From Diplocarpon mali (taxonomy: Eukaryota > Ascomycota > Leotiomycetes > Helotiales > Drepanopezizaceae): a stretch of DNA of 28,836 nt. The stretch covers positions 1-28,836 of the forward strand of contig JAENRP010000454.1 in the NCBI GenBank assembly GCA_024741835.1, read 5' to 3'. Made by a program: the position numbers and the translations under genes. This document shows positions 3,646 through 28,320 of this stretch, one piece after another; position 1 is the stretch's first letter; every line of letters starts with the position of its first letter. The notes under the pieces were generated by a model. It was not told the DNA's origin and made no database searches. It was given only the letters and a program-made list of their open reading frames with translations.

Positions 3646-3658
3646 GGTTATAAGCCCT
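3646..3658 (+). other. Primer-binding site, half-tRNA type, element C
   Basis: GGTTATAAGCCCT follows the 5' LTR with no gap. It is the same 13-nt word as in element A, although the LTRs of the two families are unrelated. It matches the complement of the initiator tRNA-Met anticodon arm except for one TpG to TpA change. Confidence 0.72.
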
Positions 3659-5079: not shown

Positions 5080-5185
5080 CCTAGGGCCAATTCTTACTTG
5101 CGAGCTAGGCCTAGGAGTCAATTCTAACTCCTTCCTAGGGCCAATTTCCACTCGCGGGCCGGGCCTGGGAGTCAGTTCTTCTACC
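5080..5185 (+). repeat. 54-bp tandem duplication carrying two palindromic words (element C, Gag-protease linker)
   Basis: Two consecutive 54-bp units (18 codons each) begin with CCTAGGGCCAATT and carry the 26-bp word in its minus orientation, at 5096-5121 and 5150-5175. They read TCELGLGV and TRGPGLGV and stay in frame. They lie just before the protease active site, in a part of the polyprotein that tolerates length change. Confidence 0.85.
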
Positions 5186-6559
5186 TACTTCTTATTAAAA
5201 TTGAGGAATCGTTAGCTATATAATATAAGTACTAGTAAGCATATCTCTAATGATCTCTTTAAGTTCACTTCCTATACTACTTAAAACAATCTACCCTCCT
5301 TGAGTATAGTTAATAAATCTGTTTAACCTTTTAGTATTAGCACTTGTAAAGTCAACGCACTTAAATCCTATAGAAAGGTATATATTCTTAAGTTAATTAA
5401 TACTCTTTATATACCTTAATCTCCTATCTACTTATACTTAGGTGGCAAACTTAATAAAATCAAAGGCTTCTATCGAAATAGCAAGCTATTCCTATCTAAT
5501 AAGAAGGAAATTCGCACTATTAATAATAATATATATATTAATAAGGAATAGCCTTCTACTGACTCCTTTAGTTACGTAAGTGGATATGCTCTCCTAGCTG
5601 CTATTGAGAATAGACCTTTTGATATTAAGCTCTAGTACTATCGATTAGGCCACGCTAGCTTACAAACGGTTAGAAAGACCTAATCTGCTATCACTAATAT
5701 GCAGATTAAGGAAACAAAATCAGGGAAGACGCGAATTTGCGCTCCTTGCGAGAAAGGCAGACCTCTCCGATATATTAATAAACGTTTAGCTCGCCCTCGA
5801 CCTATAAAGGCACTTGACGAGCTATACGTTAATATAATTCATCTAAAGCCAACTGGCCTTAATAGCTACAAATACGCTTCTATCTTCACTTGCGTAGCTA
5901 TAATAGCTAGATAGGGATGGACTTATATAAACAAATCTAACGCCTTTAAGGCAAATAAGAAAATAATTAGCCTTTTACAAACTTAGTATAATCGCATAAT
6001 TAAGCGTTGGAGAACTGATGGAGGCAAGGAGTACTCTCTTATATAGATGCGAATACTTATAGAAAACCTTAGTATAATTTTGGAAGAATCTACTTTATAT
6101 ACGCTAGAATAAGACAGTAGATCGGAACGATTAATTCGTACACTAATAGAAAAGTTGCAAATAGCTGTAATTGACTAAAATATCCCCTCCTTTCTCTGGC
6201 CTTACCTCCTTCTTTCGGTGATACATATTACTAATCTTACTGCCTTTGATATTCTAAGTGGCAAGACTTTATATAAGGTCTTTTGGGATAATATCAAGCC
6301 TAATAAGCCTTATACTCCCTCTGTCAAGTATCTCTAAGTACTAGGCTGTCGCGTCTATGTGCTAATTAAGAAAGAAAGGCGAACTTAGAGCAACAAACTC
6401 GCTCTAAGAGCAGAGGTAGGTACTTTTATCGGATTTGATAGTAGAAGTATCTATTAGATCTATATACTATTGCAAATAGGTGAAAAGATTATTCGATTAT
6501 CTTACGTTCAATTCAATAAAGACGGCCTGATTATAGAGCCGCAATTAAGGGGTGATTTA

Positions 6560-6684
6560 ACTCCTAGTCTGGGACCGCGAGTCAATTCTCACTCTTATAA
6601 TTTCACTCCTAGGCCGGGACCGCGAGTCAATTCTAACTCTTATAATAATGATGATTTTACTCCTAGGCCAGGACCGCGAGTCGA
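6560..6684 (+). repeat. Three palindromic words in the integrase-RT linker of element C
   Basis: Plus-orientation copies lie at 6560-6585, 6605-6630 and 6659-6684. Starts are 45 and 54 bp apart, and all are in the same codon phase, reading TPSLGPRV, TPRPGPRV and TPRPGPRV with Asn-Ser-rich spacers. They are much more GC-rich than their surroundings and are the least RIP-damaged copies. The first is preceded by TTAAGGGGTGATTT, which also precedes the copy in the 3' UTR. Confidence 0.88.
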
Positions 6685-8485
6685 TTCAGGAGAAGCTAAT
6701 GAAGCTGAGCTTCCAACTCTAAGAAAGAGAGAAAGACCTCCTGGTTCAAAGAATAAGGCTTACCCTTAGCCTTCTAAGAAGAGAGCTACTCGCTCTACTG
6801 CTCTTAGATTCAAAGCTGATAACTCTAATAATAAGGAAGCCTATTTAGGCGCCTTCCATATAGCCTTACTCGACTCTCCATACTTAAATGACCTGAAAAC
6901 AGTCGAATAAGCCCTCTCTCGCGCCAACGCTAACAAATGGCGATCTGCGATTAACTTTAAGTACAATTCCCTCGCTTATAAGAACATATAGGTAGTAGTA
7001 AAACGCTTAAAACTCTCTAAAGACGATAGAGTACTTGGATTAAGGCTTGTCTTTAAAACAAAAAGAGACTAAAACGGGGAAATCTCCTAATAGAAGGTCA
7101 GATTCGTTGTGCAAAGTTATATATAATAACAAGGTCGAGATTACAACTAGACATTTGCTAGAGTATGCAAATCTGCGATTTAGAAGATTGCAATTGCGCT
7201 CGCAGCGCTATACAACTTCAAGCTAGATCAATTCGACATTGAGACAGCTTTCCTTAATTTAGAAGCTGACTCTAATATCTATATTAAGTTACCTCCTAGA
7301 TACACTTAAGACAAGGTCGTTCTATTATCTTAAGACTACTGTCTTAAGCTTCTTAAGGCCTTATATAGCTTAAAGCAATCTCTACAACTATAGTAAGAAA
7401 AGCTATAGTCTAAGCTATAAAAGCTCGATTTTCAACCTTTCAATACTAACAATTGCGTATATATCAACCGCGCCTCTCGGATTCTCATCGTCACCTACGT
7501 CAACGACTTCCTTATAGTAGCAAAGAAGGGTGATATATATAATAAGTTTAAGAGAGATCTTCGCAACCTCTTCGAAATCATAGGTAGCGAACTGGCTAAC
7601 TACTTCTTAAAAGTATATATAGTTAGAGATCGATAAAATAGAACGATCTCACTTTATTAAGACGCTTATATTAATAAGGTTCTTAAACGTTTTCATATGA
7701 CTAATTGCAAGAGCGTACTAACGCCTTTTACTAATGGCTATAAAGTTCATATAGTCAAATTTGAAGGCCAAGCCACTCTATAGGAAGTAAAGCTATACTA
7801 AGAGATCTATGGTTCTCTATAGTACCTTGCGCACTATACGCATTAGGATATACTATACCACTGCTCTATTCTTAGCAAATTCCTTACTAACCCTTTACTA
7901 TAATATATAGTAGCTTTAAAACGAGTTTTATAATACTTGCAAGGAACGCGATTCTATTATACTACCTTTAGAAGCAAAACAACTGACCTAGAGCTTTAGA
8001 AATTGCATAGCTACTGCGATTCTGACTAGGCAGGTGACAGAGGAAGTAAAGCCTCCCATTCTAGGGCCGTCTTCTTCCTTAATAATAGTATAATTACCGC
8101 CTCCTTTAAGCGATAAACTATTATCGCTCTCTCATTTATAGAAGCAGAGTACGTCGCTATATGCAAATTCGCATAAGAAGCCTCTTAGATACGCTAGGTA
8201 CTTAAGGAAATAGGCTACGCTAGCGATAACGCTACCAAAGTCGAGATGATCTGCGATAACTAAAGAGCCCTTCATCTTACCGAAAACCCCGAATATCATC
8301 AGAGAACGAAGCATATCAATATCAAGTTCTATTATATTTAGCAAGAACTTTAGAAAGGCCATTTAGACCTCTAGTATATAAATACTAAAGACAATGCCGC
8401 CGACGGCCTTACTAAGAGCTTAAATAGCTCCAACCATGCCGCCTTTATCAAATTGTTGAATATAAAGGTTCTGCACCTCGATTAA

Positions 8486-8761
8486 GGGGTGATTTTTTTT
8501 GCACCCCTATTATAGGGTGATTTTTTTTTGCACTTCTATTAAGGGGTGATTTTTTTTTTTTACTCCTAGGCCAGGCCCGCGAGTTGATTTTGACTTACTA
8601 AGGGGTGGATTTCCTACTTTAGAGTAGAGCGCGCTAGCGAACTCTACTCTATTTCCAATATCTGCAGGTTGATTTTTTATGCGAAACTGTAAAATATAAC
8701 AAAAGTTATAACGTTATATATATTACTAGCGAGTACCTTTAAAGGTCTCCCTAAAGGGGTG
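8486..8761 (+). other. 3' UTR of element C: GGGGTGATTT repeats, palindromic word, hairpin, purine tract
   Basis: Three tandem units of roughly 28-33 bp start with AAGGGGTGATTTTT (about 8484-8561). One palindromic word follows at 8562-8587, then a further AAGGGGTG unit. A hairpin has arms TAGAGTAGAG (8620-8629) and CTCTACTCTA (8642-8651). A short purine run, AAAGGGGTG, at about 8753-8761 is next to the 3' LTR and serves as the polypurine tract. No gene is present. Confidence 0.75.
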
Positions 8762-9010
8762 TATTACAGGTATGCCTATCATATATTTATCACATGATCT
8801 ATCATATAACACATTATATATATGATATATCATATGACTTGCCATATGACTTAGCGGCTTCGCTAAGAAGCCCGCTTACCTTAAGTAGCTCATAGTTAGA
8901 GAGCTCTTATGAATCAAGACACTTAACATCGTCGTTTGCACCTCATACTTCTTCGTGCCCTCTCTTCTAGTTTACTATCAAGTTCACTATCTGAGAACCT
9001 CCTTGCTACA
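8762..9010 (+). repeat. 3' LTR of element C (249 bp)
   Basis: It has exactly the same length as the 5' LTR. It begins TATTACAGG (TG changed to TA) and ends GCTACA. The hairpin CTTAGCG-GCTT-CGCTAAG is kept at 8850-8867. ATATA at 9011-9015 follows as the right target-site duplication. Confidence 0.93.
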
Positions 9011-10100
9011 ATATATATTCGGCCTTAATACTTATAGTAGCTACTGATTTCTACTTCCTACTTTCTTATAATATAGCTCTGCTATATAATACTACTATAC
9101 TTTTAAATATAATTTTCTAACCTTTTATATTTGCCTAATTAGAATTGGTATATACTTTAAGCTTTATACTTATATATTTTATTAATCTATATTTTACCTT
9201 TTAAATAATTATCAATCGAAGGTATCTTTTAAATCGCTTAATTGGGTTTATATATTAAATCATTAAATCCTTTAAGTTTTAATTAAGTTACTTAATAATA
9301 AAGGCAATATCTAATCTTATATATACTATAATATATATAATCGCTTTAATATCCTATTAGTACTTCTTTAGATCTCCTCTTTACTTATTTTTATTAGTAG
9401 GTTTTAACTTATTATACTTTCCTTTAATTGGAATACGTCTTATCTTAAAGTTGAAAGTATAAGTAAAGAGTCCTATTCGATTTAGGATCTTTTTAATATA
9501 TTACTCTTAATCTAATTAGAGTTTTTAAGTAGAGCGGTTCCTTATAATATAGATACTAAGGATCTTATAAATTCCCCTTAGATCCTTAGTATTAAAACGC
9601 TTTTAAATAGTTATAAAGAACTAATCTAATTAAGTAGTTGTTTTCGCAGCTATAGTAATATTATTAATATATAATAGCAACTTAATTCTACGCTTAATAT
9701 AAGTAAATAGATAAGGGTTAACTAGGCTTTAAATGAATCCTATTTCTATTAAAGTAAAGCTATATAAGAGGTTTTAATTATAAGCTAATTGCTTAAGCCT
9801 ATAAATATTGTAAAGTATATAAAAAGAGTAGCCAACGCGTATAGAAATACTATTAAGTTAAAAGAGAAAAATCCGTTCCTTTATAATCGCCTTAATAAAT
9901 GCATTTTGAATATTATACTATTTATATTTAAAGTCCTTAGCAGCTACTATTACTATAAATATATAAAGGGTATTTATACGAACTATTAGTGCGAATATAT
10001 TAAAGTAGTCTTCTTTATATTATTAAAAGAAGCCCTTAGCTATAAGTCTTACTTTATAGCATTTCAAGGTCCTATCTATATATATCTTAATTATAAAGAC
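9011..10100 (-). pseudogene. pol: Element D pol, middle piece (RT to RNase H), RIP-decayed
   Basis: The minus strand matches element B from about 14355 to 15455: the RT fingers, palm and connection, then the first part of RNase H. The RT active site reads YINN (bases 9657-9671 on the complement), the same two Asp-to-Asn changes as in B. The segment is bounded by ATATA (element C insertion) and AAGAC at 10096-10100 (element B insertion). Short plus-strand frames here are shadows of the decayed minus-strand frame. Confidence 0.82.
9011..10100 (-). mobile_element. Element D, piece 2
   Basis: This is the middle of the inverted A/B-family Copia element, lying between the insertions of C and B. 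It aligns to B with no gap once C is removed. Confidence 0.85.
10096..10100. repeat. Target-site duplication AAGAC, left copy (element B)
   Basis: AAGAC precedes the 5' LTR of B and is repeated at 16288-16292 directly after its 3' LTR. The sequences on the two sides join into a continuous element D frame. Confidence 0.87.
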
Positions 10101-10296
10101 TATTAAGATGGGTGATACAGCTATCACTCTGATGTATTATCATATGACCCTACTGCTTAGTCAGTAGGATGTTGATACGTATATAGCTATAGGGAAGTTA
10201 AGGGGTAACCTTCCTTCCTTAACTCTTACTAATATATCGACTATCGACCTTTAAAAGCCTCCTTTAACTACTGCGCCAACTCACTTAAGCTTAATA
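10101..10296 (+). repeat. 5' LTR of element B (196 bp)
   Basis: It starts TATTAAGATG (TG changed to TA) and ends AAGCTTAATA, next to the primer-binding site GGTTATAAGCC at 10297. It contains TCATATGA at 10140-10147. It matches the 3' LTR at 16092-16287 and the LTRs of A and D. Confidence 0.9.
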
Positions 10297-10309
10297 GGTT
10301 ATAAGCCTT
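10297..10309 (+). other. Primer-binding site, half-tRNA type, element B
   Basis: GGTTATAAGCCTT is the same site as in A and C with one further C-to-T change. It sits directly after the LTR. Confidence 0.68.
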
Positions 10310-10695
10310 AGATAGACTGATAATAGATTATTAACTTCCCTTAAAAAGCACTTGCACTGCAACTATTAGTAGGAAGTTGAATGAGACTTATAGTAAGAGG
10401 CGAGCAATCGGCGAATAGGAGGTATGATTCCCTATTTAGCTAACCTGTATTATAAGAGGTGTGATTCCTTGCTTTATAACCCTTTGGTACTATAAGAGGT
10501 GTGATTCCTTGCTTTACTATATTTTATAAGAGGTATGATTCCCTACGTTATAGCTTAAAAAACCCTTTTCGATAAGAGGACTTCCTTCCTATTTAATACT
10601 TCTATAACACTTGCTATTTAATCATTTTGACTTTTCGATAGGAGGAGTGCCCTTAACCATTTGATTTATTTGATTTTAATATAATTCTATTCGAA
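10310..10695 (+). other. Leader of element B with AGAGGTATGATTCC-type repeats
   Basis: There is no gene. The short direct repeats seen in element A recur here (near 10429, 10456, 10494 and 10528, with degenerate versions near 10572 and 10638). They keep the same order and spacing. Confidence 0.7.
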
Positions 10696-13600
10696 ATGGC
10701 AATAGCTTCCGATTCCGATCGAAATACTAGACTTAAAGACCTTTAACTCTTTCGAAAGAACTAGCAATAATAGTTCGACAATTTAGAGCTTTACTTTAAG
10801 AGCAAAGGCATTGAAATAGCGATTTAAAAGACACTTATTAAATATGCGAGAATAGCCTCCTATACTCCCTTTACTGATTCGTCTACTTCTACTTTAATAG
10901 CTAATACAACTGCTAAGGATTTGCCAGATATATTAAATAAGCTTAGCCTAGGAGCTTTAATAGATAATAATTAAGAGTCTTAAAGGTAGATTTTGAATAT
11001 GGAAAAGGAGAAGGAGTATAAGCTAGCCTTAGTTAAATATAAGCTTAAGATTAATAGAGGTTTAAGCGATAAAGACTAAGATTTTATTTAAGTTTATAAT
11101 AATACAAAGATAAGATAGGATACTTTAAAGGTAAAATACTCTTATATAATTGCCTTTAATACTTAGCATCTACTTTAATAGATTACTTTATTTTAATATA
11201 AAAAAGATAAAGATAGTAAGGATATAGATATAAATATAGACTCTGCTTAATCTATACTATATAAAGCGAGGAGGAGAGTAAGAGCCGCAGATCCTAGGAT
11301 AGTTATAACTTTTAAAGAAACTTAGCTTTTAAGTTTCCTACTTAATAGCCTTCCTCCTAAGTTCGCTATTGCGAAATAATCTCTTCTTATTTAACTTAAC
11401 CTTAAGATCTATAAGAAGATCGACCTCCTTTAACCTATTGAGTAAGACCTTAAAGGACGCTTTAAATCGGCAAATGCCGTATTATAAGGTAACGATAAGC
11501 CTAAGAAAAGGAAGGAGCGCGGGATAAGCCCTTAAGCTTATTAGGGATGCTACTTTTATAATAGAGCTTATAATATTACTAATTATAAAGTTAAAAGGCA
11601 ATTGATTAATATAGTTGCTAGCTTTAATATTAAGAAGCAATCGAAGCAGAAGTCAAGAAGCAAACTGCCCTTATCCTATCGAAGGCTGCAACTATTAAGG
11701 AAAGGCAAAGGAAAAGGCTATTTAGCTAAAACTTTAGCAGATACCTTTAATAATAATAGTAGGTTATTTAAACTTAAATCCACTTCCGATAATTTAAATG
11801 ATAATTATAATAAAAATGCTTATATTTTAAAAGCCGATCTTTATAAGATCCTTAAATCTAATTAATATAGTAATACTAGTTGTATAGTATATATAATTAA
11901 TAAACCTTACCTATTTAAAGGCCCGCTTATTTAAATAAAAAGGCGCTTTATTAAGGTTAGTAGTAAAAGGTTATATATAGACTCAATAGGTATAGTAAAG
12001 ATGAATATTACTAGTATTTCTTTCTTTTTATAAAATGTTCTCCTTATGCCTAGTCTAAGTATTAATCTTTTATTTAGCCGCAAGATCTATATAAAGTTAA
12101 ATTATATAAGAGTTTTTAATAATCAATTTATATAATTTATAAATAATAATTATAAAGTGATCTTTAAAGTTAAAATTAAAGATAGGCTTTATATTATTTT
12201 AAAGGTAATATTATAGAAATTGACTTTTAAACTAAACTTATAAGTAGATTCCTTTAAGGAAAGTGCACTCTTTACCTTAATATAATTAAGTAAGGATAAG
12301 GAGAATAGATGGACTCTTAAGCTAGGATTATAAGTGAAATTTGCGAAAATAACTCTTAAGCTAAGATTATAAGTAAATTATAAAGTATCTTTAAAAGTGA
12401 CTCTTAAGCTAGGATTATAAGTGAATTTAATAGAAATAACTCCTAGGCTAAGACTGCAAGTAGATTCTATAAATTTACTAATAATAACTCTTAAGCTAAG
12501 ATCGCAAGTGAAATTCGCAAAAATAACTCTTAAGCTAGGACTATAAGTGAAATTCGCAAATTCGTTAGAAACGACTCTTAAGCTAGGACTATAAGTGGAT
12601 CTTGCTATTTCTAAAAAATCGACTCTTAAGCTAAGACCGCAAGTAGATCTTATAATTTTATTAAAAACGACTCTTAAGCTAGGCTTATAATTAGAAAATA
12701 GCAAAACCTTAAACTATTATTACTAATCCTTTCTAGCCGCTGATAATAAAGCATTAACTAATAATAGGCTACTAAAGCTATTAGAAGCTAAAAGCCTATT
12801 AAGGTATTAGCTAATATATAAAAAATTTACGCATCTAAAGCTAAAGAAATTAAAGGGCTTATATAAGGTCTCGACTTTAAAACAGAAGATCTAAGTACTA
12901 AAGGATCGCTTAGTATACCGAATTTGCAAGCTAATAAAACTTCGAAATCGAACGCAAATTAAGCTTAGTCTATAGAAAGATTCAATACTAGCGCTAATAT
13001 CTATTAATACCGCTAGACCATTTACAACCTTAATTAAAGGCAATAATTGGTTTTCTTAAATAGTAGATAACTCTACTTAGCAGATATAGACTATTTGCAC
13101 TAGGACTAAATCTAAGCTTATAGAAAAGCTAGAAATTTAAAAAGTAATAGAAGAACGCTAGACTTAATTAAAGCTAATAGCTATTAAGTCTAATAATACA
13201 TTAGAGATTAAGGCAAAGCTTAATAAATAGGCAAAATAAGGAGTTTACTATAAACTAACTATAATATACAAAGATTCCTATTAGAATAGTATTATTAAGT
13301 AAAGTATTTAGTAAGTAGAGACTAACTATTGCACTCTACTATAAGATACTAACCTACTGCTAGAATTCTAAGACCTTGCGATTAAGGCAAATGTATACCT
13401 GCGAAATAGAATAGGTAATAGACTAATAGTTAATAGCACTTAAATATCGCTATATAAGGCATATTTCAAATAGAAACTAAGCTTGGACTATATCTGCATC
13501 TTTAAAAGCGTCTACTATTCTTATATTAGCTCAAAGTCCTAGCCTATAAGTATAAAGAGTAAGAAGCTAATAGACTGAGGTAAAGAGTATATATTTATTA

Positions 13601-15771: not shown

Positions 15772-16091
15772 AAGACAATAGGGACTTAGTAGGCTTAAGG
15801 ACGACTCTTAGGCCCACCTTGCAAATCAGGTTATATAGTCTTATAAAGGAAAAGTTTTTAAATCAACTCCTAGGCTTAGATTGCAAGTCAAGTCATATAG
15901 TCTTATAAAGGAACGCTTTTAGGAAATTTGACTCTTAGTCCCGCCTTGCGAGTAAGGTTAGTGATTTTAATAGAAGTTGCTATTAATTGATTGTTTTTAT
16001 TTTAAAGAGATACTTAAGAGTTAGATTAGCGCAAAAGGATAGTTATTATTTTCCTAACTATAGGTCAATTAGAGTAAGGTCTAAGTAGGGG
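15772..16091 (+). other. 3' UTR of element B with three palindromic words and a purine tract
   Basis: Plus-orientation words lie at 15804-15829, 15866-15891 and 15931-15956. The second and third are preceded by a shared TATAGTCTTATAAAGGAA segment, giving a tandem unit of about 62-65 bp. After that, no gene is visible. The run AAGTAGGGG at about 16083-16091 is the polypurine tract next to the 3' LTR. Confidence 0.8.
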
Positions 16092-16287
16092 TATTAAGAT
16101 AGGTAATATAGCTATTACTCTAATATATTATCATATGACCCTACTGCTTAATTAGTAGGATATTAATACATATATAGCTATAAGGAAGTCAAAGGGTAAC
16201 CTTCCTTCCTTAACTCTTACTAATATATCGACCATCGACCTCTAGAAGCCTCCTTTACCTACTGCACCGACTCACTTAAGCTCAATA
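16092..16287 (+). repeat. 3' LTR of element B (196 bp)
   Basis: It begins TATTAAGAT and ends AGCTCAATA. TCATATGA is at 16131-16138. The copy is followed by AAGAC (16288-16292). It differs from the 5' LTR by transitions. Confidence 0.9.
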
Positions 16288-17003
16288 AAGACCCACTTTA
16301 TTAATACTAGGTTTACGTCTTTTAGCATTAGTTCTTCAATTTATATACTATTTATAATAAGAGAGCTTATTTCCTTTTAAATTGCCTTATTTTATACTAC
16401 TCTATTCTTTAAGTTATTAATAGCTTTATTATACGTCTTTAAAAGAGAGATTTTTATTATCCTCCTAGTAGTTAAAAATATATTATCTTCGTCGAAGCTC
16501 TATTAAAGTTCAAGCTTATAGATCTTATGAACAATTATAGCCTAAATACGCTTAGATTCGCATTTATTTAAAGTATCTTCTATTTCTAAATCTCTATTCC
16601 TCTTTAAAGGCGTAGGCTTGGTTATAGATTCTATAAGCTTATTATTATAAGAACCGCTTTCTAGTAGTAGAGGCTTATTATTACTTATACCTATTTTAAG
16701 AATATCCTTTACTATAAGGATAATAATATTAAAGTTATTTTATACTTTAAGTAATTCTCAAACGTTAGGAATAGTCTATTCGGCCTTTAGGCGATTAGTA
16801 GGTCGTTAGTTAATAAGTACGCTTAATATACCTAAGTTAAAAGAGAGAGGTTATTAATTCAGCTTAATAGTATTACTATTAAGTAGTATACCTTATGAAT
16901 CTTTAAGTATATAAAGCTTTAAGGATAGCTCCTTCTTATTTTGAGATTCGTTAAACTCAACTACTAAGGAAATAATTACTTACTTTAAATCTAGCGCATA
17001 TAC
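16288..17003 (-). pseudogene. pol: Element D pol, integrase C-terminus to RT N-terminus, RIP-decayed
   Basis: The minus strand matches element B from about 13628 to 14358. This is the region after the integrase core, the variable linker and the first RT block (KWVF-type motif). It continues 9011-10100 once B is removed. The match ends at 17003, where element E begins with TGTAAC. The last five bases (TATAC, 16999-17003) are the presumed duplication made by E. Confidence 0.8.
16288..17003 (-). mobile_element. Element D, piece 3
   Basis: This is the rightmost visible part of the inverted Copia element D. Its 5' LTR and gag must lie beyond element E, outside the window. Confidence 0.82.
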
Positions 17004-17310
17004 TGTAACGGCTGTACCCCCAATTGGTGCAATTACTTAGGAGTATAGCGTTTTAAGGTTTTGCAATCTCGATTCGATGCAGGGTTATTTCGAATCGACC
17101 CTAAAGGTGCAAAAGGATATTCTTGCATAATATCACGTAAACGGGTAAAGAGCTTTAAGCTATTTATATATATAAGGAAGAAGGGCTCTCTTATAGGGAG
17201 GGCTCTTTAACTTCTTTGTTTCTTTTATATTAGACCTATAGAATACGCCTTTTGCACTACTTTTTACTATTATACTTGATCTTGTACTTTAGCGGTTCTA
17301 TATTGTTATA
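17004..17310 (+). repeat. 5' LTR of element E (right end tentative)
   Basis: The left end TGTAAC is set by the break in element D. The right end at 17310 is proposed because GTTATA there would be GTTACA before C-to-T change, the inverted complement of TGTAAC. No second LTR is in view to confirm it. Inside are an inverted repeat, TCGATTCG (17069-17076) with CGAATCGA (17091-17098), and a TATA-like run TATTTATATATATAAG near 17160. Confidence 0.5.
17160..17176 (+). promoter_or_regulatory. TATA-like promoter element in LTR of element E
   Basis: A TATTTATATATATAAG run lies about 155 bp into the LTR, where an RNA polymerase II TATA box would be expected. In so AT-rich a sequence this is weak evidence. 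Confidence 0.35.
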
Positions 17311-17618
17311 TTAAATAAAGAAGTTCTTTTCCGCTAAGGACGGCTTTTAATAATATCTTACCCTTTTTAAAAATCGATTCGCGGTTGTTTCAACTTTTGA
17401 TAGAGTTAAAATCCTAGAGATCTTTTGGATAAACTAGGAGCTTAAGTGTAGCTTATTAACTAATATAATCGAGGAACGCTTTCATTAGCCGGATTTTCTT
17501 AACTACTCCTTTTATAGAAGTACTATAGGCAGAAGTTAGGAGAGCACTATGCTATTAGAACCCTTTTTCTATAGAACCCCTTTTTAACCGAATTACTATT
17601 GAAACTAAAATCGGTAAA
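17311..17618 (+). other. Leader of element E, no gene seen
   Basis: This is the stretch between the proposed LTR end and the gag ATG. I could not identify the primer-binding site. No recognisable reading frame or repeat stands out. Confidence 0.4.
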
Positions 17619-18976
17619 ATGAATTCCTTACTAGCCGGAAGTTAGCAAACCCGGAATATACCCGGTTCATTTAGGGAAGCAGCTTCTATAAGGAGTACCC
17701 CTACCTTAGCCCCTAAGGCTAGACCTTCCTTTGCTGCTAAGGGCAAGAGATAATAATACTATAGCTAAGCTAATTGAGATAAATAAGACTTTTCGAATCT
17801 AAATGTCTTATAAGGAATAGTCTTAGGTTTAGAGGAATCCTTATAATGCTAAGATCAATCTAATCGATAATTGCAAAGCGAGATTAGTAGGATTGCCTAA
17901 GCTATCTTTGGCCTAGAGACCTTAGCTTATTAAAGCTAAGAGATAGCTTAGCGCGTATATTAGACTATTAAGCGAGAATCCACCTACCTTTGATAAAGCA
18001 AAACCTAGCCTCTTTTGGAAGTCGATATAGATATAAAACGGCTAAAAATTCAGCTAATTGAAAAGATTACCCCCTTTAATAATAGGACCTCTTTAATATA
18101 TAAGTAGTAGTTAGCTTTAATCTAAGACCGATTGCAAATTAATGCTGACTTATATCTAAATGAGCAAGCTTGCTAAGCCCTTATTTAAGGATCTACTATA
18201 AGATAAGCCTAAATATACCTCGAACCCTAGTACCTTTTAAAGACTAACCCCTTTCGAAACTATTAAGAAATAGTAGAACTGCTAAGCAATTACTTTTTAA
18301 CTAGCTAAGAAGTAGACCTATTTCGATCTACTTTCTATTACCTTTATATAAGAGAAGCTAGTTATTTTAAAGAAACTTTCCCTTAATTTCAAGCCCGATT
18401 CTAATCTACTGCGATCTAGGGAAAGGTCTTAAGATTTAAGTAGTTCTTCTTTATATAGAATAAGATTACCCCTTAGCTTAGAGCTGCCTATGCCTTAGCT
18501 AAGGCCTTTTAAAGGAAGGACTATATTATTATATTTAATCAATTGAACGCCTTTAATGCCAAATGCTAAAGTAACTAACTTTTTAACCTTTTAATTAAAA
18601 GCAAAGCGACCTTAGTATTATATTAGAAGATATCCGATTCGCTCTTTAATAAGACTGCTCGCGGTCTAAGCGCTAAAAGTACTACTTGAGTTTCTAAGCC
18701 ACTAGCCCTAAAGCCAACTACCCCTTTTCGCTAAGATACGCTAGCTAAGGCTAGTTCTTCTACTTTACCCTTTAAATAAGCTACTTATTAGACCTATGGT
18801 AAAACCGGTTACTATAAGACTAAGTATCCTTTTGCAAGTAAGATTAATGCTTTAAAAGATATAAAGGAAGCTAATCCGACTTTAAACTTAATTAAGAATA
18901 GGGTCGAAATAGAAGAAGATTAAGAAAACGAAAAGGCTTAGGAAAAGACTCTTACTTAGGCTTGCGAAAGTATGAC
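17619..18976 (+). pseudogene. gag: Element E Gag (Ty3/Gypsy), zinc knuckle destroyed
   Basis: The frame runs from ATG at 17619 through about 450 codons with roughly 45 TAA/TAG/TGA, nearly all at Gln or Trp positions. The protein starts with a Ser/Thr/Pro-rich region, has a capsid-like middle (FFIQNKIT, AYALAKAF) and ends with a nucleocapsid. The C-x2-C-x4-H-x4-C knuckle is recognisable by its spacing, but all four ligands are Tyr: 18786, 18795, 18810 and 18825, around the segment GKTG. TGT to TAT and CAC to TAC are exactly RIP-type changes. In the living element this protein would form the particle and bind the RNA. The end is not certain, because the pol frame begins in -1 phase near 18902-18962. 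Confidence 0.85.
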
Positions 18977-20797
18977 TTATTAAAGCTAGATCTTAACTCT
19001 TTAATAAGAGGGAAGCAATTCCTAACCTTTTATACTATTAGTATAAATAGACTTAGAGTATCGTTATTAGCTTTAGTAGATACTAAAGCCCTTAGTTACC
19101 TATTTTTAAATTGTTCCCTTTCTATACGTCTTTCGAAAGCGATTAGCTTTAAAATTCTTCCTCTTCCAGCCTCTATTCCTATCTATAGATTTTAGAAATC
19201 TATTTGCGCGCAAGCTACGTACTATATATGCTTTTACTTAACAATTGATAAAAGGCGTATTTACAACTGCCCTTAGGTTATTCTTGACTTAAGCTAGCGT
19301 AATGCTATTATTAGAGTTAAATAGATACGCCGATTCTGACTTAAACTTAATTTAAAGGAAAACCGATTTATATAGCCTTTGTATTACCCCTTATCTTTCC
19401 GATTTGCAAAGGAAATTGTTATTTGTCTTTCCCCTTTTAAAGGACTTCGGATCCGATCCGATTATTAAGCTGATATTAACTATAGAGAATAGAAAATAGC
19501 TATAGACGAAGCTTGATAGATTAATAGAAGATAGTCTTATATTAATTTAATAGTCCTAGCTAGGCGCGAGATCCTTATTACTATTACTAGGCCAGCGCCC
19601 TTACTTATAACTAAGCTAGATCTAGGAAAACAGTCTAATATAAATCGACTATAATCTGACCCTATTCGCAAATGCCCTAAAGCTGCGGTTCCTATTTACA
19701 AAATTAATACTAATGCCTTTTATTATAATATAAAGTATAAGGAGATTGAGTTCTTTTAAACTAGTATTTATAAAGTGGATAGGATTTTAAAGGAAAGATA
19801 TAAGCCTAAGAATCCTAATATTAAAAAGCTAATTAACAATCGACTCTTAAAATAGTACCGATCTTTAAGATAAGCTTTCTTAAAAAGGGATGCAAATACC
19901 CTCCTTCCCTATTAGTACTACGATTATAAGATATAGTTAAAAGGGCCTTTGCCTAATGCCTATTCGCTCCTTTACTATTAATCTACTAAGGAGCTTAAGG
20001 TTATAAAGGAGTACTTACTTGAGAATTTAAATAAAGGCTTTATTAAAACAAGTACTAGCCCCTTTGCTTTACTAGTACTATTTATAAAGAAGGCCGATAG
20101 TAGCCTTCGATTTTATATAGACTACCGGAAGCTAAATGCACTAACTCAAAAGGATGCTTACCTGATTCTAAGGATAAATAAGCTTTTAAGGCGAGTATCT
20201 AAAGCTAAGATTTTTATAAAGTTGGATATTTAAGCCGCTTTTAATTGAATACAAATGGACCCTGAATTAAAGGAATATACTACCTTTCGAATAAAGTATA
20301 GATCCTATAAATGTAAGGTTCTCCTATTCGGCCTTTATAACAGACCTAGTACTTATTAGTAATATATAAATAATATTCTTTTAAATTACTTAGATGATTT
20401 TTATATAGTATATTTAGACGATATTTTAATTTACTTTAAGAATATTAAGGAGTACTAAGGTTATATCGAAAAGGTATTAAAACGACTCTTAAAGGCTGAC
20501 CTTTAAGTAGATATTAAAAAGTATAAGTTCTATATTACTTGAACTCAATATCTTAAATATATTTTAATAATAACTAGGATCGAATTAAACCTTAAAAAGG
20601 TCGAACTATTGCGCAATTAGAAATACCTAAAAACTATTATTAAAGTAAAGTCTTACCTAGGATTTTATAAGTTCTATTAATAATTCATTTGCAACTTTAA
20701 GCTAATTGCTAAACCCCTTTCTATTCTAACCCGACTAATAGTACCTTGGAATTAAATAGAAAAGTGCCGAATCGCTTTTAAAGAGCTTTATAAGCAA
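18902..20797 (+). pseudogene. pol: Element E Pol (protease and RT), truncated by element F
   Basis: The frame is -1 relative to gag. The protease has Asp-Thr-Lys at 19079-19087 where DTG is expected, followed by ALSYLFLN, which fits the fungal Gypsy pattern D(S/T)GAxxxLFIN. The RT follows: ENLNKGFIKTSTSPFA near 20030, LRFYIDYRKLN near 20107, and the active site VYLDDILIYF at 20408-20437, with both Asp intact. The downstream YLGFYKFY block near 20655 ends in the connection segment FKELYKQ, where F is inserted. About 630 codons remain, with many TAA/TAG. The frame would have produced the protease and polymerase, but is not functional. Confidence 0.87.
20793..20797. repeat. Presumed target-site duplication AGCAA (element F)
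   Basis: These are the five bases of element E directly before the start of F. The right copy would be beyond the window, so this is positional inference. Confidence 0.4.
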
Positions 20798-21057
20798 TGT
20801 GGAGACCTGAGATGGATAGGTCTTGTGACATATATCATATGATCGGCGCAGGCCGGTAGGAGGATAAAAGGGCCACCTTCTATATATAGAGACAGCGCGT
20901 GTCGCTATAGTACTAAATATACCCTATACTTGGGACTTATTCCTAATATCTTATCTAAGAGAGCCCGCTTGTGGTGCTTCCTCCTTTTGTTTTTAGGTCT
21001 TCCCTTAGGCCTATTCTTATATTGTCTCCCCTTAGTTTTATATTAGTGACCTACGCA
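20798..21057 (+). repeat. 5' LTR of element F (right end tentative)
   Basis: The left end is exact, because it breaks the E frame. The right end is proposed at CCTACGCA (21057), but there is no second LTR to test it. The LTR is the most GC-rich and least mutated stretch in the window. It contains TCATATGA at 20835-20842, a GACCT/AGGTC inverted repeat near 20803-20823, and a TATA-like TCTATATATAGAG at about 20878-20890. Confidence 0.5.
20878..20891 (+). promoter_or_regulatory. TATA-like promoter element in LTR of element F
   Basis: TCTATATATAGAGA lies about 80 bp into the LTR, inside the comparatively GC-rich part, so it stands out better than similar words elsewhere in the window. Confidence 0.45.
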
Positions 21058-21328
21058 GGGACCGATTTCTTAAGATTTCTGTCCTTATATAACCTTATCA
21101 ATCTCTTAGTTTGTAGATAAGAGACTGGCCTTTAAAATACGTCTTTAAAACACTTATAGCATTTTAATCAACTTTAAAACCCTTATCCTTAATTGCCTAG
21201 TTACTTAGAACTATCGATTTTCGTTTAGCAATTATTAATAACCTCAGATTTTCCCTTTTCAGCTCTGCTTTAAAAACCCCTATTTTCTTCCTTAACTCCG
21301 AGATTCTCGGAATTTTCGGCTTTTCGAT
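21058..21328 (+). other. Leader of element F, no gene seen
   Basis: This is the stretch between the proposed LTR end and the gag ATG. The primer-binding site was not identified. A TTCGGCTTTTCGATATG segment leads into the start codon. Confidence 0.4.
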
Positions 21329-24300
21329 ATGAAAAGTTTGATAAACCCTATAATAGCAATCTCAAACAGTAGTAGTTTCAAGTACTTAAGTAATACTAAG
21401 CGCAAACTCTAATAGGAAATGCCTTCTTAGAATCTTTAGAAATCCGAATCTGATAATTCAGCCGCCTCGGCTTGATAGAACTTTAAAAATTGCCTTAGAA
21501 TCGTCTCTAGAGACCCCTTTATTCTAAAGACTAATAGGAATTAGCCTAAAGGCTAAGAAGAATCTTAGATACAAATCTTATTTTAGAAATTGGTCTTAGA
21601 TTAGGTAAACCTTATCTTATTGCGATTAGTCGCAACGCTCCTATTAGCTATTTAGCACCTATTTAAAATCTTTTAGTAAACTCGGATTAAACTTTTAATA
21701 GAATCCGGAATTCTACTCCTAGGCCTAGCCTATAAGTAGGAGGATAAAAAGACATCCTTGAATAACTTAGGACTGCTACCTACTTTTTTAATATTAACGC
21801 TTGAAAACACTAATAATAATAACAATTTTGAACTTTTCATTAACCCTTTATTTAAATCTTTTTAAACTCGTCCTAATCACTTTAAGATTAACTCGGATTC
21901 TAAACGCTCTTTAAACCCTTTTGAATTTCAAAGTACTCCTTTTAGCAATCAATCTCGCAATATCAAAGCTTCCCCTTTGCCCCTTATAGATTCTATCAAC
22001 TTAGACAGTTAGTATGAAACAATAATGGCCGCATTTAAGGCTATTACTAATCACTTTCCCCTCTTTAATTCCCTTAGCGCTCCTTACTTTATAGGCGCTA
22101 ATATTACTGATTTCCTTAAGTAATATAAGGAAACTTATTACAATTTTGGTATTATATAAGAGGATATGATTTCTCGACTTCCTTGCTACTATAATTATAT
22201 AAGTAAGGATATTATCAAGTCCCTCCTTAAATGGAAAACTTATAGTTTATAGGAACTCCTTATTAAGGCCCTCAAATCTGAATTTCGCAAATTTAATAGA
22301 TAGTAGATTTGCGATACCCTAGCTTTCTTAAAGGAATTTATTCTAGTCACTTATACTCTTAAGGAATTTAAAAACTACTATCGGACTTTTACTTATATAT
22401 CAAATACCTTGATTAGCTAGAAAATACTTAGCGAAGTTGAAAGAGGCCGCCTTTTCTTACTTAGATTACCTATTAGCCTTTGAAATAAGATTATTAAGCA
22501 TTTTAGGATTAATAAGTAAGACCTTATAACCTTTGCCTTATTTAAGGAATTCTTAGCCTTTACTTTAAAATCAGATCTTAATAAGAGAATTATTAATGCT
22601 ATAGAATAGGAAAAAGCCCCTATTCCCTCTTATATTAAAGACCTTAAGAGCCTGGTCTAAGAATACTTAAAGGCTTTAGAAGTTATAGAGGAGGCAAAGA
22701 AGAACCTAGTGGTCATACCTTTCACTTGCGGTCTTAACCTAAGAGTAAGATCTAACCTTAGAATTAAGGAACTTAAGACTCAATTTGCAAAACTCTAAAT
22801 CTAAAGCTTAGAAACTAAGATTAATAATCTTTTATAAGAAAAATAGTATATTCCCTAATTTGATAATAGATAAAACTCGGCCACTATAAGCCAACCTAGT
22901 AGTTCCTATTATCAGACTTCTACTTCTTATTATTTAGAACAATTAGCTAATATAAGAACGCAATAGCTAGCTAAAGAAGGAGGAATTGATCCTAACTAGC
23001 ACTTTGCTAATATTAATACTATAGGGTATTAAGGAAATAGCAATAGAAGACGACTAACCTGCAACTTTTGCAATAATAAAGAACCTAACTATACTTTATA
23101 TAAGTATTGCAATAATTGCCCTCTTTTCCTTCGTTTTATTAACACTAGGGTTATATATATTAATAAGTATAAGATGCTTTACATTAGGGATCCTAGGCTA
23201 GAAGCTATCCCTATTAAAAAGTACTAGAATCACTTATAGTTATAGACTATTCAAACGATAATATATAGTATGAAATAGGACGAGAATTTAGTCGAACGAT
23301 AGCGTATTATAAATATAAATGCTAAAATCCTAACTTATATATATATAGGTCTAACTAGCAATCTACCTAAAGGAGTTCTTAAGGACCTAGCTTTTAATTA
23401 AATAGCTATAGAAGTTAGAGGCATCTCTATCTTAAAATAGGTTAATAATAACGTATCTGCTAATATTAATATTGCTTCTATATCTAGAAACCCTTAGAAT
23501 ACTTAGCGTCCTTCTAGATCTACTACTCCTTTAATATTAATAAAATTAGCTAAAGTCTAGAAATTAATGCGTGTAACTTGGGAATCTTAATATAGAGTCC
23601 AAACGCTAAAAGATACTTAATAATCTAGAACCGCAGTAGATAAGGATAAAGCTGATATAGCAGACAAATTGATCAAAGATATAATAGATAAAGATGGCTT
23701 TAAGCTTAAAGATTAAGAAGTTGAAGTTATTACATAGACCTTTGACCTTAAGCGAAAGAGACAAATGTTAAAACAGGAGAAATTCGTCGATAAATACGCT
23801 AGTTCAACCGCAATAGAGAAAGCTATAGAGAATGTTATAGCTTAGCAAATTAACCTTACGTTTAAAGACCTATTTAGTTTAATTGGACGCTTTGATAAAG
23901 TGCTAGGAAAGCATATCCTAGTTGCTTTTAAAAATTTGAATGATAATAAGGAAATGGAAATTGTAATGCGAAAGAACTTTAAGAAGTACCTAGCCTTGAT
24001 TAAATGTCTTTAGATTATAAAAGACAAAGGAACCTAAAGGTACTATAATATTATAGTAATAGCTTTAATATCTTAGAATATTAATCGAAATTGTTTAGCA
24101 GTTGTAATAAAAAGCCTTATTATTATTTATTTTATAGAAGAATCAGTTAAAGCAAAGGCTTTAATCGATTGTAGTTTAAAAGTTAATATAATAATTAGAA
24201 AAGTGGCGGAAATGGCTTGATTGACAATTATTAGCGATCGACTCCTTATTTATTTAACTGTCTTTAGATTAAAACACAATTTTAATAGATAGGTAAAAAA

Positions 24301-24606
24301 TATAAAGGTTAGAGTTAAAGGAATTATTAATTATACTAACTTTCTAATAATAGAGAATTCTTTAAATAATATTCTTTTAGGAATGCCCTTTATTTTAAAA
24401 TCTTAGCTAATATTTAACTATCCTAAAGATAGGCTTATAAAAGCTAGCCTTTAGAATATAGATCGATCCTTAGAAGGATAAATGGTTATTGTAAGAGATA
24501 TAGCCGAATTCTAAAACGAGGTTTTAGGAAACGATTAGCTAGCATAAGGGCTAGGCTTAATACTAGTAAAGGAAGGCACCTAGCGAGGAGTTATAGCAAA
24601 AGAAAG
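21329..24606 (+). pseudogene. gag: Element F Gag-protease (Ty3/Gypsy), RIP-decayed
   Basis: The frame runs from ATG at 21329 to about 24606 (some 1090 codons) with many TAA/TAG and rare TGA. The first 230 codons are low-complexity (Ser, Asn, Leu). A capsid-like region follows from about 22025 (MAAFKAI, then WKTYSLQELLIKALKSEF). A coiled, Lys/Glu-rich segment comes next, then a nucleocapsid with Cys at 23060 and 23069 and a partly lost second half (CNFC...YKYCNNCP). The protease motif is LIDCS at 24161-24175, where the Gly of D-x-G is now Ser, with VNIIIRKVAEMA after it. Two palindromic words lie in gag (21715, out of the usual phase; 22724, in phase). Gag end and pol start are uncertain: pol runs in -1 phase. 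Confidence 0.82.
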
Positions 24607-27600
24607 GTAAGTTTATCGATTTTGAATAATAGTGATTTAACTTGCGGTCTTAGACTAGGAGTCAAATTTGGAATTTTGAAAAATAGTATAATTGGCGTTT
24701 TATCAGCTTAATAATTAAGAAAAAAGAAAAATAAGGTAGAGAAGAGAGTTTATTTTACAAATTTCGATAATTCATTAATTATTTTAAAAAACTTAAAAAC
24801 CACTTATAGGCCAGACCTATAAGTGAAAAATAATAAAATTATTAATAATATTTCTATTTACGCACTTCAAATTGATAACTTAGAAAATCTTTTATTTGTT
24901 TTTAAAAAGGAAAATTCGAATTGTTTCGCAGGATTTGATAAAAAAGGAAAGAAGTAAAGAAGTATAGTATTAGCTAATATTCGAACTATATATAAAAGCA
25001 AGGCCGATAAAGTATAACCGGTAGATTAGGGAATCTCTAATGGCTTAAAGCCTAGAGGACTAGATGATTAGTTTGAATAAGATAAGAAGCTTCGACCTCT
25101 GAAGCTAGGTAGCAAATTCGATAAGTTTATTATAGGCAGATTTTCTAATAAACCTATCGGATATTAATTAATAAAAGAATATTTCGATATGCTAAAAATT
25201 AAAGAAGACTTAATAGAGCAAGAATGCGAACTACTTTATAAAACCTTAACAAATCGAAAGGGCGCTTTAGCTTTTGACTAGACGGAACTTGGCCAGATTC
25301 GAGAAGAGGTCATACCTTATATTAAGATTAAGATAATACCTTACAAAGCTTAGCAAGAGAAAACATTTAGAATCCCTAAAGCTCTTTAAGAAAAGGTAAT
25401 CGAAATATTAAAGGATAGGCTAAAGCAAGGTATTCTTAAGTTTTATAATAGCCCTTATAAGAATAAATAGTTCTTAGTTGCTAAAAAGGAAAAGGGAACT
25501 TATAGACTAATAATAGTAGTAGTAGAAATGAACCGAGTAATTGTTAAAGACGCTAACGTTCCTCTAAATATAAATGAGTTCTTAAATGAATTCGCAGGAT
25601 TAACCTATAGCTCTCTTATTAACTTCTTCTTTAAATATAACTAATTTATTCTTAATATTAAATTAAGAGATATAATAGCAATTTAAACCCCTTTCAAACT
25701 ACTTTAAATAATAAGATTACCTTAAAAGGCTATAAATTCGATCGCTCAATTTGTCTGAGTAATTTATAAGATACTAATAGATTATATACTTAATATTGCG
25801 CTCCCTTATATAGACGATATAAGAGTAAAAGAATTAAGATTATTCTATAACTATAAAGAAGTTCTCCTTAGTATATAATGATTTATAATAGAATACATTT
25901 AGAACTTAGATTAAGTGCTTATACAATTCGAAAGGGCAAGAGCAATAGTTGGTCCGAAGTTATAATACTATCTCCTATTGATGGAAATTGTTGGTTTTAT
26001 TACTGATTCTAATGGCCGAAGTCCTTAAAGGGCTAAAGTACTTAAAATCGACAAATGGAAGAGGTATAATAATGTGGTAGAAGCTCGCGCGTTTATTAGA
26101 GTTATAGTATATTATCGCATTTGGATTAAGGATTTCGCTAAAAAGGCAGTACCTATTTACTCCTTATTTCGGAAAGGGGCTGAGTTTTAGTAAGAGAAAC
26201 CCTAAATAGAGGCTATGAAATAACTAAAGCAAGCGTTGCTTAAGGCGCCTTATTTAATTAAAATAGACTATAGAGCTGACGCTAGGCCAATTATACTAAT
26301 AGTTAACGTAAGCTTAATCGGATAGGGTACTATCCTTTAATAAGCTAATAGCTAGTAGAAAAGATATCTAGCTCGCTTTAAAAGTGGTCTTTAGAATCTA
26401 GTAGAAATAAAGTATAATACTATTAAATAGGAATGCAGAGGCGCCTTAAAGGCGATGAAAAAGATAAGAAGCGACCTTTATAGTACTTACTTCATTCTCG
26501 AAACCGATGCTAAAGTGCTAGTAGAACAATTGAATAGAGCTGCAAGCGACCTATTAAGAGCCTTGCTAATAAAATAGATTACTTAAATAAGACTAATAGA
26601 CTTTAAAGTCAAATATATTTTAGGAATGAAAAACACCGCTGCCGACGGCCTTTTAAGAAGAACTCGGCCCTACCCTTTTAATTTAATTAAAGAAGATAAA
26701 ATAGATATTAATAAGTAGGTAGAAAACGAAGTTAATTATCTATTAATATATTGCCTTAAAGGGACTCGACTTGCGAGCCCGGCCTGTGAGTCAAATAAGA
26801 GAATTTTATTACCTAACTACTTAAGTGACTTTGAAGAAATCGTAAAGTTTTTAATTATACTTAAATAATTAAAGACAATTGCTCTTAAGGATTTTCAGAA
26901 ATTCAAAGCTAAAGCTTTGATTTATCTAATATAAGGAAGACGATTATTTAAAAGGAGCGATAACTCATTCCCTATATAACTCTACTTAAATAATGAAAAA
27001 CTAAGGGCTAAGGCTATCTAGGATATTTATAAGGAAACTGGCCACTAAGGAGCTAAGTCCACTTACTACTAACTCTTAAGAAAATTCTTTTAAAAAGGCT
27101 CTTTTAAAGATTGTAAAGCTTTTATAAAGAGTTGCGTCCTTTATTAGAAATGAAAACCTAGTTGTAAGGAAAATCCCTTATTCCTAACCTAGCTATTAGG
27201 CCTTTTTTATAAAGTCAGCCTTAATATTATATAAGTACTAACTATTAAGAATAGGATAATATATTTTACTCTAATAAAGGAAGACCTATTAAGATAGCTT
27301 AAAGGACGACCTTTAAGATCTGCTAACTTTGAATCTATTGCGAAGTTCCTTTAAGAAGATATAATCTATTACTATAGACTTTTTAGCAGATTAACTATTA
27401 ATAGAGGCCTTGAAAATAAAGGAGTAGTTAAAGCTTTCTTATGAAAATATAGTATCAAACGGGTTTAAATCTCAGTATATAACTCGAAAGCTAATAGAAT
27501 AGTAGAATAAGGATATTATAACATTCTTAATAGTCTATCTAAAGTTACTTATAAAGGATTTAAGGATTAAATAAAACGCTTTTATAAAATACTCTTTACT

Positions 27601-28320
27601 TATCGAACGATAATTTATAAACCGACTGGAGTTATACTATTCTTCCTTATTTATAATAGAGAGGTATAGCTCCTTTTTAAATCCCGATAGTCTATTTAAA
27701 GATTATTCGACTATAGTCAAATTTAGAACCATTCCGATTTGCTTATAATAAGATGCTGATAACTTAAGCTCTAAGATATAGATATAGAGGAAATCATTCT
27801 ATAAAAGAAACAATATTAGGAAAAAGCTAAGGAAGCGTAGGCTGCTTTTAAAGTACTTAAAACGCACCCTATTCGAAAAGATGATCTTGTCCTAGTCTAC
27901 GATATTATAAGAAGTATTAATATATTAGCAGATACTAAACTTAACTATCGATAGCTTAGTCTATTTAAGGTTAAATCTGAGTAGAAAGATAAGGGATATT
28001 ATTCTCTTTAGGAACTTAATAGAGTCGATATTAAAGGAACCTTTATAGCCAACCGACTGAAGCACTTTTATTAATACGACTAGACCTTATTCCCTTTAAA
28101 AGACGAATCAGAAATTGATACAACCTCCGAATCCTTTATAGGAACCGACGGCGATATAAGCAATTTTGAACCCTTGGATAAAGATTAAGATTTTTCCAAT
28201 TTAACCTATAAGCCAGTCCTGCGAGTGAAGAATATTAAAATACCTAACTAATCGCAACTTTAAATTATTATTCCTAAAATATCTGAAGAACGCAAGTAGG
28301 AATACTAAACGATTTTCTAG
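24607..28320 (+). pseudogene. pol: Element F Pol (RT, RNase H, integrase), RIP-decayed
   Basis: The frame is -1 relative to gag and open through about 1240 codons, apart from Gln/Trp stops. RT: IPKALQEKVIEILKDRLKQG near 25372, active site YIDDI at 25807-25821 with both Asp kept, and a HIQNLD-like thumb segment near 25890. ARAFIRVIVYYRIWIKDFA follows in the connection. RNase H: ILETDAKVLVEQLN near 26493. Integrase: the H-x4-H / C-x2-C finger is half lost (Tyr27028, His27043, Cys27133, Tyr27142). The core triad is Asn27223, Asn27400 and Glu27505, where D, D(about 34)E is expected, in blocks resembling SVYNSKANRIVEQG. The tail IIPKISEERKQEYQ matches the usual end of this family. Palindromic words lie at 24640, 24802, 26769 and 28204. 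Confidence 0.88.

What the first reader, a model, noticed from the sequence alone, without database searches (positions are those of the whole stretch)
5096..28229. A 26-bp near-palindromic word dispersed through three unrelated retrotransposon families
The word has outer arms ACTC and GAGT around GC-rich inner halves, roughly ACTCCTAGGC / CGGGACC / GCGAGTCAA. I count about 27 copies. Element C has 5096, 5150 (minus orientation), 6560, 6605, 6659 and 8562. Element B has nine at 12313-12695 plus 15804, 15866 and 15931. Element D has about 2887, 2953 and 3014. Element F has 21715, 22724, 24640, 24802, 26769 and 28204. None was seen in E, in the visible part of A or in the LTRs. Two Copia families and one Gypsy family share no other sequence here, so common ancestry of hosts does not explain it. 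Horizontal spread as a minimal mobile palindrome (comparable in size to mitochondrial GC clusters or double-hairpin elements, but in nuclear retroelements) is one reading. Recurrent selection for a linker module is another. I know of no named nuclear element of this form.
Basis: seen in the sequence. Interest (0 to 1): 0.9.

Follow-up and report, generated by a model that had tools for sequence, protein, structure and literature searches.

The report
Palindromic word shared by unrelated retrotransposons
A 23-letter, nearly mirror-symmetric DNA word recurs hundreds of times in one fungal genome (likely that of the apple-blotch fungus), lies inside unrelated LTR retrotransposons in every copy sampled, and was likely copied from element to element; whether it does anything there is untested.

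Summary
All 27 listed words are there. Genome-wide a strict form occurs 512 times against 0 for the reversed pattern; a near-identical pattern occurs once in 257 Gb of prokaryote DNA, about chance. The genome is RIP-mutated and its best protein matches are Diplocarpon coronariae. Relatives in other fungi lack it. Conservation is symmetric: pyrimidine at -2 and purine at +2 in 35 of 35 site classes, ending about 6 bp outside the word. No target duplication, no arm-to-arm covariation. Seven of eight coding places use the phase that gives a Pro-Gly linker peptide. Best reading: one bounded palindromic module copied between retroelements and filtered by what the proteins tolerate. The copying route is inferred; a shared protein-binding site is the main rival.

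The parts
5096..5118 (-). word, Copia C gag-protease linker, first of pair
   Evidence: 5 mismatches; in phase in frame 3671; TREPGPGV at the same place in intact protein P0001
5150..5172 (-). word, Copia C gag-protease linker, second of pair
   Evidence: 3 mismatches on minus strand; in phase
6560..6582 (+). word, Copia C integrase-RT linker 1
   Evidence: 2 mismatches; in phase
6605..6627 (+). word, Copia C integrase-RT linker 2
   Evidence: 0 mismatches; alignment A1
6659..6681 (+). word, Copia C integrase-RT linker 3
   Evidence: 1 mismatch; alignment A1
8562..8584 (+). word, Copia C 3' UTR
   Evidence: 2 mismatches; out of the gag-pol phase
   Evidence: placed by eye from the homologous site in L011, L014, L015, L017, L022, L026; phase 0
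12313..12692 (+). nine tandem words of Copia B: 12313, 12352, 12400, 12439, 12487, 12526, 12574, 12622, 12670
   Evidence: family D4; spacing 39 or 48 bp, all in phase; array in P0076
15804..15953 (+). three words at the 3' end of Copia B: 15804, 15866, 15931
   Evidence: family D16; spacing 62 and 65 bp, three different phases
   Evidence: D10, I3, I8, I12, I13
21715..21737 (+). word, Gypsy F 5' UTR
   Evidence: 7 mismatches; homologous site in G
22724..22746 (-). word in the Gypsy F gag reading frame
   Evidence: 6 mismatches; homologous site in G; in phase
24640..24662 (-). word, Gypsy F, upstream of the RNase H domain match
   Evidence: 5 mismatches; in phase
24802..24824 (.). word, Gypsy F
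   Evidence: family D4; in phase; L027:1198 is the same site by eye
26769..26791 (-). word, Gypsy F RNase H-integrase linker; the one coding place in another phase
   Evidence: 5 mismatches; phase and sequence
28204..28226 (+). decayed word, Gypsy F
   Evidence: 8 mismatches; weak on its own
3399..9017 (+). Copia C element: LTRs 3399-3652 and 8764-9017, no word in the LTRs
   Evidence: LTR pair D5; Retrotran_gag_2, SH3_retrovirus, RVT_2; one search lists no match in the LTRs

Best explanation
A 23-bp near-palindromic DNA module, with symmetric conservation to about 6 bp on either side, occurs at about 20 different places in four LTR-retroelement lineages of one RIP-mutated fungal genome (likely Diplocarpon coronariae), and it was likely copied from place to place rather than evolved anew each time, probably by template switching or repair between retroelement nucleic acids. 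Shown: the word and its places, both orientations, an invariant internal spacing, absence from related elements of other fungi at the protein level, and gain or loss of word-plus-spacer units in tandem. Inferred: the copying and its route. In coding DNA the surviving copies are mostly those read as a Pro-Gly linker peptide between protein domains; in UTRs any phase survives. After arrival each copy multiplied with its host element and decayed by RIP. Copying during reverse transcription would explain why every sampled copy lies in an LTR element.
For: 512 strict matches against 0 reversed; 0 in IMG/VR and 1 in 257 Gb of prokaryote DNA with a near-identical pattern. 20 of 20 places picked from the roughly 100 listed of the 512 match Copia C (11), Copia B (7) or Gypsy G (2) by flank, words masked. 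P0001 (Copia C) and P0076 (Copia B) of D. coronariae carry the word peptide 5 and 6 times; of the 105 homologues returned by three searches only these two match the peptide pattern. P0003 of Rhynchosporium graminicola, 55% identical over 1492 columns, has a gap where the gag-protease pair sits and an unrelated integrase-RT linker. Two Copia lineages only 25% identical over 310 integrase columns and Gypsy lineages F and I, 25% over 130 columns, share it. Every listed match of a pattern allowing 2-20 bp inside the word has the same spacing (290 matches, the first 100 or so listed). Within Copia C, the gag-protease and linker words share a 14-bp flank CAATTCYGACTCTT. One Copia B/Gypsy F pair shares 15 bp of flank apart from transitions, 0.16 pairs expected. 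Tandem units differ between copies: C linker 2 units in L016 and L017, 3 in the other seven.
Against: Between families, flank similarity beyond 6 bp is not above chance (15 pairs above the 99% null, 16.5 expected), so apart from one pair no carried tract is seen; the earlier excess (56 against 16.5 from the word edge) is the conserved rim of the word. No clean empty/filled pair at DNA level was found in this genome; the empty sites are protein-level, from other species. No target duplication (a mild unassessed excess of direct matches at k = 7-10). Strict pyrimidine/purine at -2/+2 fits a recognition site at least as well. Confinement to LTR elements rests on 20 of 512.
Confidence: 0.5

Rival explanations
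1. The word is a dyad binding site for a sequence-specific DNA-binding protein (host or element-encoded) that benefits retroelements, for example as an insulator or anti-silencing site; unrelated families acquired and multiplied it under selection.
For: The two arms vary independently (69.2% paired cells against 70.5% shuffled, 26 classes); pyrimidine at -2 and purine at +2 in 35 of 35 classes, with only 2 matches of a looser pattern carrying a pyrimidine at +2 beside at least 512 words; the rim ends about 6 bp out; several to many copies per element, partly in arrays; at diverged non-coding sites fewer transversions in the word than in the flank (F/G 5' UTR 1 of 23 against 16-20%; G 3' sites 1-2 of 23 against 11-16%).
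Against: The conserved letters are more than a binding site needs; the flank contrast is biased because words were found by similarity, and it fails in one close pair (gag of F, L020: 1 of 23 against 0 of 140); no binding protein is known.
Confidence: 0.3
2. An active or formerly active mini-element (hairpin mobile element) inserted as a 23-35 bp unit by its own or a borrowed enzyme.
For: Near-palindrome at many places in both orientations; bounded unit; the CTGGG form has no stop in any of six frames.
Against: No target duplication; arms do not covary; every sampled copy is in an LTR element, which a free inserter would not explain.
Confidence: 0.12
3. A protein linker peptide (TPGPGPRV-like) under selection, spread by recombination between coding regions.
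For: 7 of 8 coding places use one phase; peptides lie between protein domains.
Against: Words in non-coding DNA (F/G 5' UTR, C 3' UTR, B 3' end in three phases, G 3' sites); one coding place in another phase; conserved bases at -2/+2 in coding and non-coding classes alike.
Confidence: 0.08

Closest known systems
Mitochondrial repetitive hairpin-forming elements: yeast GC clusters, fungal double-hairpin elements, sponge RHE (PMC2800124, passages read); Fusarium mitochondrial palindromic repeats (PMC7218506, passages read)
   Same: short palindrome dispersed in a genome, also inside genes away from structurally important parts
   Different: here nuclear and inside LTR retroelements; arms do not covary; no insertion-site signature found
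Rickettsia palindromic elements (recalled; only search listings seen)
   Same: palindromic repeat tolerated in frame in unrelated coding regions
   Different: much longer (recalled), bacterial, in host genes; here all sampled copies are in retroelements and also in UTRs
Su(Hw) sites of the Drosophila gypsy insulator (PMC2374998, passages read)
   Same: a cluster of repeated motifs inside a Gypsy-type retrotransposon, separated by short AT-rich stretches
   Different: 12 bp consensus, 12 sites in the 5' UTR of one element; here a 23 bp dyad across four lineages, coding and non-coding; no binding protein known
VANC target motifs of Arabidopsis VANDAL transposons (PMC5735166, passages read)
   Same: short motif that accumulates inside transposons, partly through tandem repeats
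   Different: 9 bp motif, mainly non-coding, rare outside its own family; here shared by unrelated families
Conserved palindrome/hairpin next to the 5' LTR of fungal GalEa Copia elements (PMC5445492, passages read)
   Same: palindrome in fungal Copia elements
   Different: 9 bp, one fixed place by the LTR, different sequence

Membership tests
Mobile palindromic/hairpin element (GC cluster, DHE, RHE type) | similar palindrome at many non-homologous places | tested here: met
Mobile palindromic/hairpin element (GC cluster, DHE, RHE type) | hairpin kept by compensatory changes | tested here: not met
   69.2% paired against 70.5% shuffled, 26 classes
Mobile palindromic/hairpin element (GC cluster, DHE, RHE type) | insertion signature: target duplication or clean empty site | tested here: inconclusive
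   no duplication; empty sites only at protein level in other species
Mobile palindromic/hairpin element (GC cluster, DHE, RHE type) | organellar genome | tested here: not met
   words lie in nuclear-type LTR elements
Protein-binding motif array of a transposon (Su(Hw)/VANC type) | motif clustered in transposons | tested here: met
   20 of 20 sampled
Protein-binding motif array of a transposon (Su(Hw)/VANC type) | specific binding protein | not testable with these tools
   needs pull-down or EMSA
Protein linker module | confined to coding DNA in one phase | tested here: not met
   UTR words and one out-of-phase coding place
Copia LTR retrotransposon (host element C) | LTR pair with gag, integrase-side and RVT_2 domains in that order | tested here: met

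The most novel reading that the evidence does not exclude
Unrelated Copia and Gypsy elements of this fungal lineage share one palindromic address, passed between families during reverse transcription and multiplied in arrays, because a single trans-acting protein reads it, so that rival retroelements exploit the same factor.
Probability: 0.22. Interest if true: 0.85.

Novelty: new variant of a known kind. Interest (0 to 1): 0.6.

Why it matters
Short dispersed palindromes are known from mitochondria and some bacteria. A module that passes between Copia and Gypsy lineages would be a nuclear counterpart carried by retroelements, a marker of exchange between unrelated retroelements, and a clear case of how new linkers and regulatory sites enter polyproteins. 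If it is instead a binding site, several unrelated elements would depend on one factor that can be pulled down directly.

Tried and rejected
Rejected: chance. A code with TAA/TAG as sense: frames open up, but also on antisense strands, and TpA/ApT 1.25-1.58 with (CpA+TpG)/(ApC+GpT) 0.55-0.89 over window and 20 loci point to RIP. A hairpin kept by pairing. Target duplications. Rfam families (0 matches). Separate status of D and of my provisional families H and K: D is B inverted; the words of L013, L020, L024, L018 and L062 belong to the 3' part of Gypsy F. Carried flanks between families: first counted as 60 against 18.8, but that count treated parts of F as separate families; recounted the excess vanishes 6 bp outside the word, and I lowered the best reading from 0.55 to 0.5 for that. 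A looser peptide pattern also caught P0050, an RT-side motif by eye and not the word. Flank mapping for empty sites gave mostly tandem-unit shifts and no clean single-word empty site in what was shown; its output was cut.

Literature: and the find in the D. coronariae genome paper (PMC11527701, passages only: 'palindrom' 0, 'rip' 0) gave no description of this word; the library lacks most subscription journals.

Full report
Setting. The window is contig C454 of a 49.37 Mb assembly of 676 contigs. Composition shows RIP (window TpA/ApT 1.43, (CpA+TpG)/(ApC+GpT) 0.62).

The word. A scan with ACTCCTAGGCCGGGACCGCGAGT gives 14 matches with at most 6 mismatches at 13 places (0.0 expected); the more decayed copies appear in repeat families D4, D10 and D16. 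Genome-wide the strict degenerate form occurs 512 times, the reversed control 0. A near-identical pattern gives 0 in IMG/VR and 1 in 257 Gb of prokaryote DNA, where about two are expected by my own arithmetic. The window plus 20 loci of 10 kb, chosen because they hold strict hits, contain 170 words in a RIP-tolerant scan and 0 in the reversed sequences.

Host elements. Copia C: LTRs 3399-3652 and 8764-9017, gag, SH3-like and RVT_2 matches. Copia B: RVT_2; P0001 and P0076 are 25% identical over 310 columns. Gypsy F: LTR from about 20801 by eye, RNase H and integrase zinc matches; its 3' part, outside the window, carries more words (L013, L020, L024, L062). G (L022, L025, L028): gag region similar to F's and F-like LTR sequence after its 3' word (L030, by eye), so I take it as a gag-only derivative. 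Gypsy I (L009): RNase H matches just before two words, 25% identical to F over 130 residues.

Places. Coding: C gag-protease, C integrase-RT, B array, F gag, F 24640, F 24802, F RNase H-integrase, I RNase H-integrase. At seven of these eight ACT is a codon, on either strand of the word; at F RNase H-integrase it is not. There the CTAGG form would put TAG in frame; the three copies read (window, L020, L024) have other letters. Non-coding: F/G 5' UTR, G 3' sites, C 3' UTR, B 3' end (three words in three phases). The CTGGG form has no stop in any of six frames. Spacing is a multiple of three in coding arrays (39, 48 in B; 45, 54 in C) and not at B's 3' end (62, 65).

Empty sites. P0003 of Rhynchosporium graminicola is 55% identical to P0001 over 1492 columns, with a gap over the gag-protease words and an unrelated integrase-RT linker. 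Gypsy homologues P0078-P0090 show other sequence at the RNase H-integrase site; P0091 does not reach it. Among all 105 returned proteins the word peptide occurs only in P0001 and P0076. Copies of these families in D. coronariae therefore have it where more distant relatives do not; at what point it arrived is not known.

Anatomy. Over 35 site classes (16 F/G, 10 B, 6 C, 3 I; tandem copies included, so not independent) -2 is a pyrimidine and +2 a purine in 35 of 35, with A/T-rich preferences further out, symmetric. A looser genome-wide pattern with a pyrimidine at +2 has 2 matches beside at least 512 words. Columns 5 and 19 are mostly C and C, which breaks the palindrome. The arms do not covary. 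Spacing inside the word is the same in every listed match of a variable-gap pattern. The half-word ACTCCTAGGCCNGG has 790 matches, with an RAGT end 575; at least part of the difference is words with other ends, as in L018 and L062.

Spread. No target duplication (mean direct matches at k = 7-10 slightly above the mismatched pairs, e.g. 3.33 against 2.42 at k = 10, significance not assessed). Word-plus-spacer units are gained and lost in tandem (a 45-bp unit by eye between L034 and L041). Within Copia C the gag-protease and linker words share CAATTCYGACTCTT on the same side although the core is turned round. Between families, flank similarity counted from the word edge is above the null (56 pairs above the 99% cut, 16.5 expected, of 1648) but from 6 bp outward it is not (15 against 16.5), so the shared unit is about 35 bp with a soft rim; one pair (B 3' word and a Gypsy F word) shares 15 bp (0.16 pairs expected). 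So copying as a bounded unit fits; carriage of longer flanks between families has one example. Why only retroelements: copying during reverse transcription is the simplest reason and is inferred.

Constraint. At diverged non-coding sites the word has fewer transversions than its flank (F/G 5' UTR 1 of 23 against 16-20%; G 3' sites 1-2 of 23 against 11-16%). The comparison is biased, since words were found by similarity, and one close pair goes the other way (L020 gag). I hold copying of a module at 0.5 and a binding site at 0.3; both can be true.

Literature. What was read of each paper is stated in Closest known systems. The searches gave no description of this word.

Noticed in passing
window 20801 onward; L013, L020, L024, L062: Gypsy F appears unusually long (about 15 kb by adding distances between loci), with a long TGA-free frame beyond the integrase (L062 2959-6921, minus strand).
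   Followed up: partly
L022, L025, L028, L030, L032, L039: Family G looks like a gag-only element with F-like LTR sequence; its 3' word in L025 and L030 is nearly a perfect palindrome, and runs of N fall near the same place in L022 and L028.
   Followed up: partly
window 8462-8560: The Copia C 3' UTR holds repeated AAGGGGTGATTTTTTTT units resembling the polypurine tract; nearly the same letters encode QLRGD just before linker word 1.
   Followed up: no
window 13529-13551: A minus-strand stretch with 8 mismatches to the word inside Copia B; near chance level.
   Followed up: no
window 17030-20800: Gypsy E is cut by F's LTR before its RNase H-integrase linker, so its lack of words says little; a 23-residue match to Gypsy I (43%, E 0.084) only hints at kinship.
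   Followed up: partly
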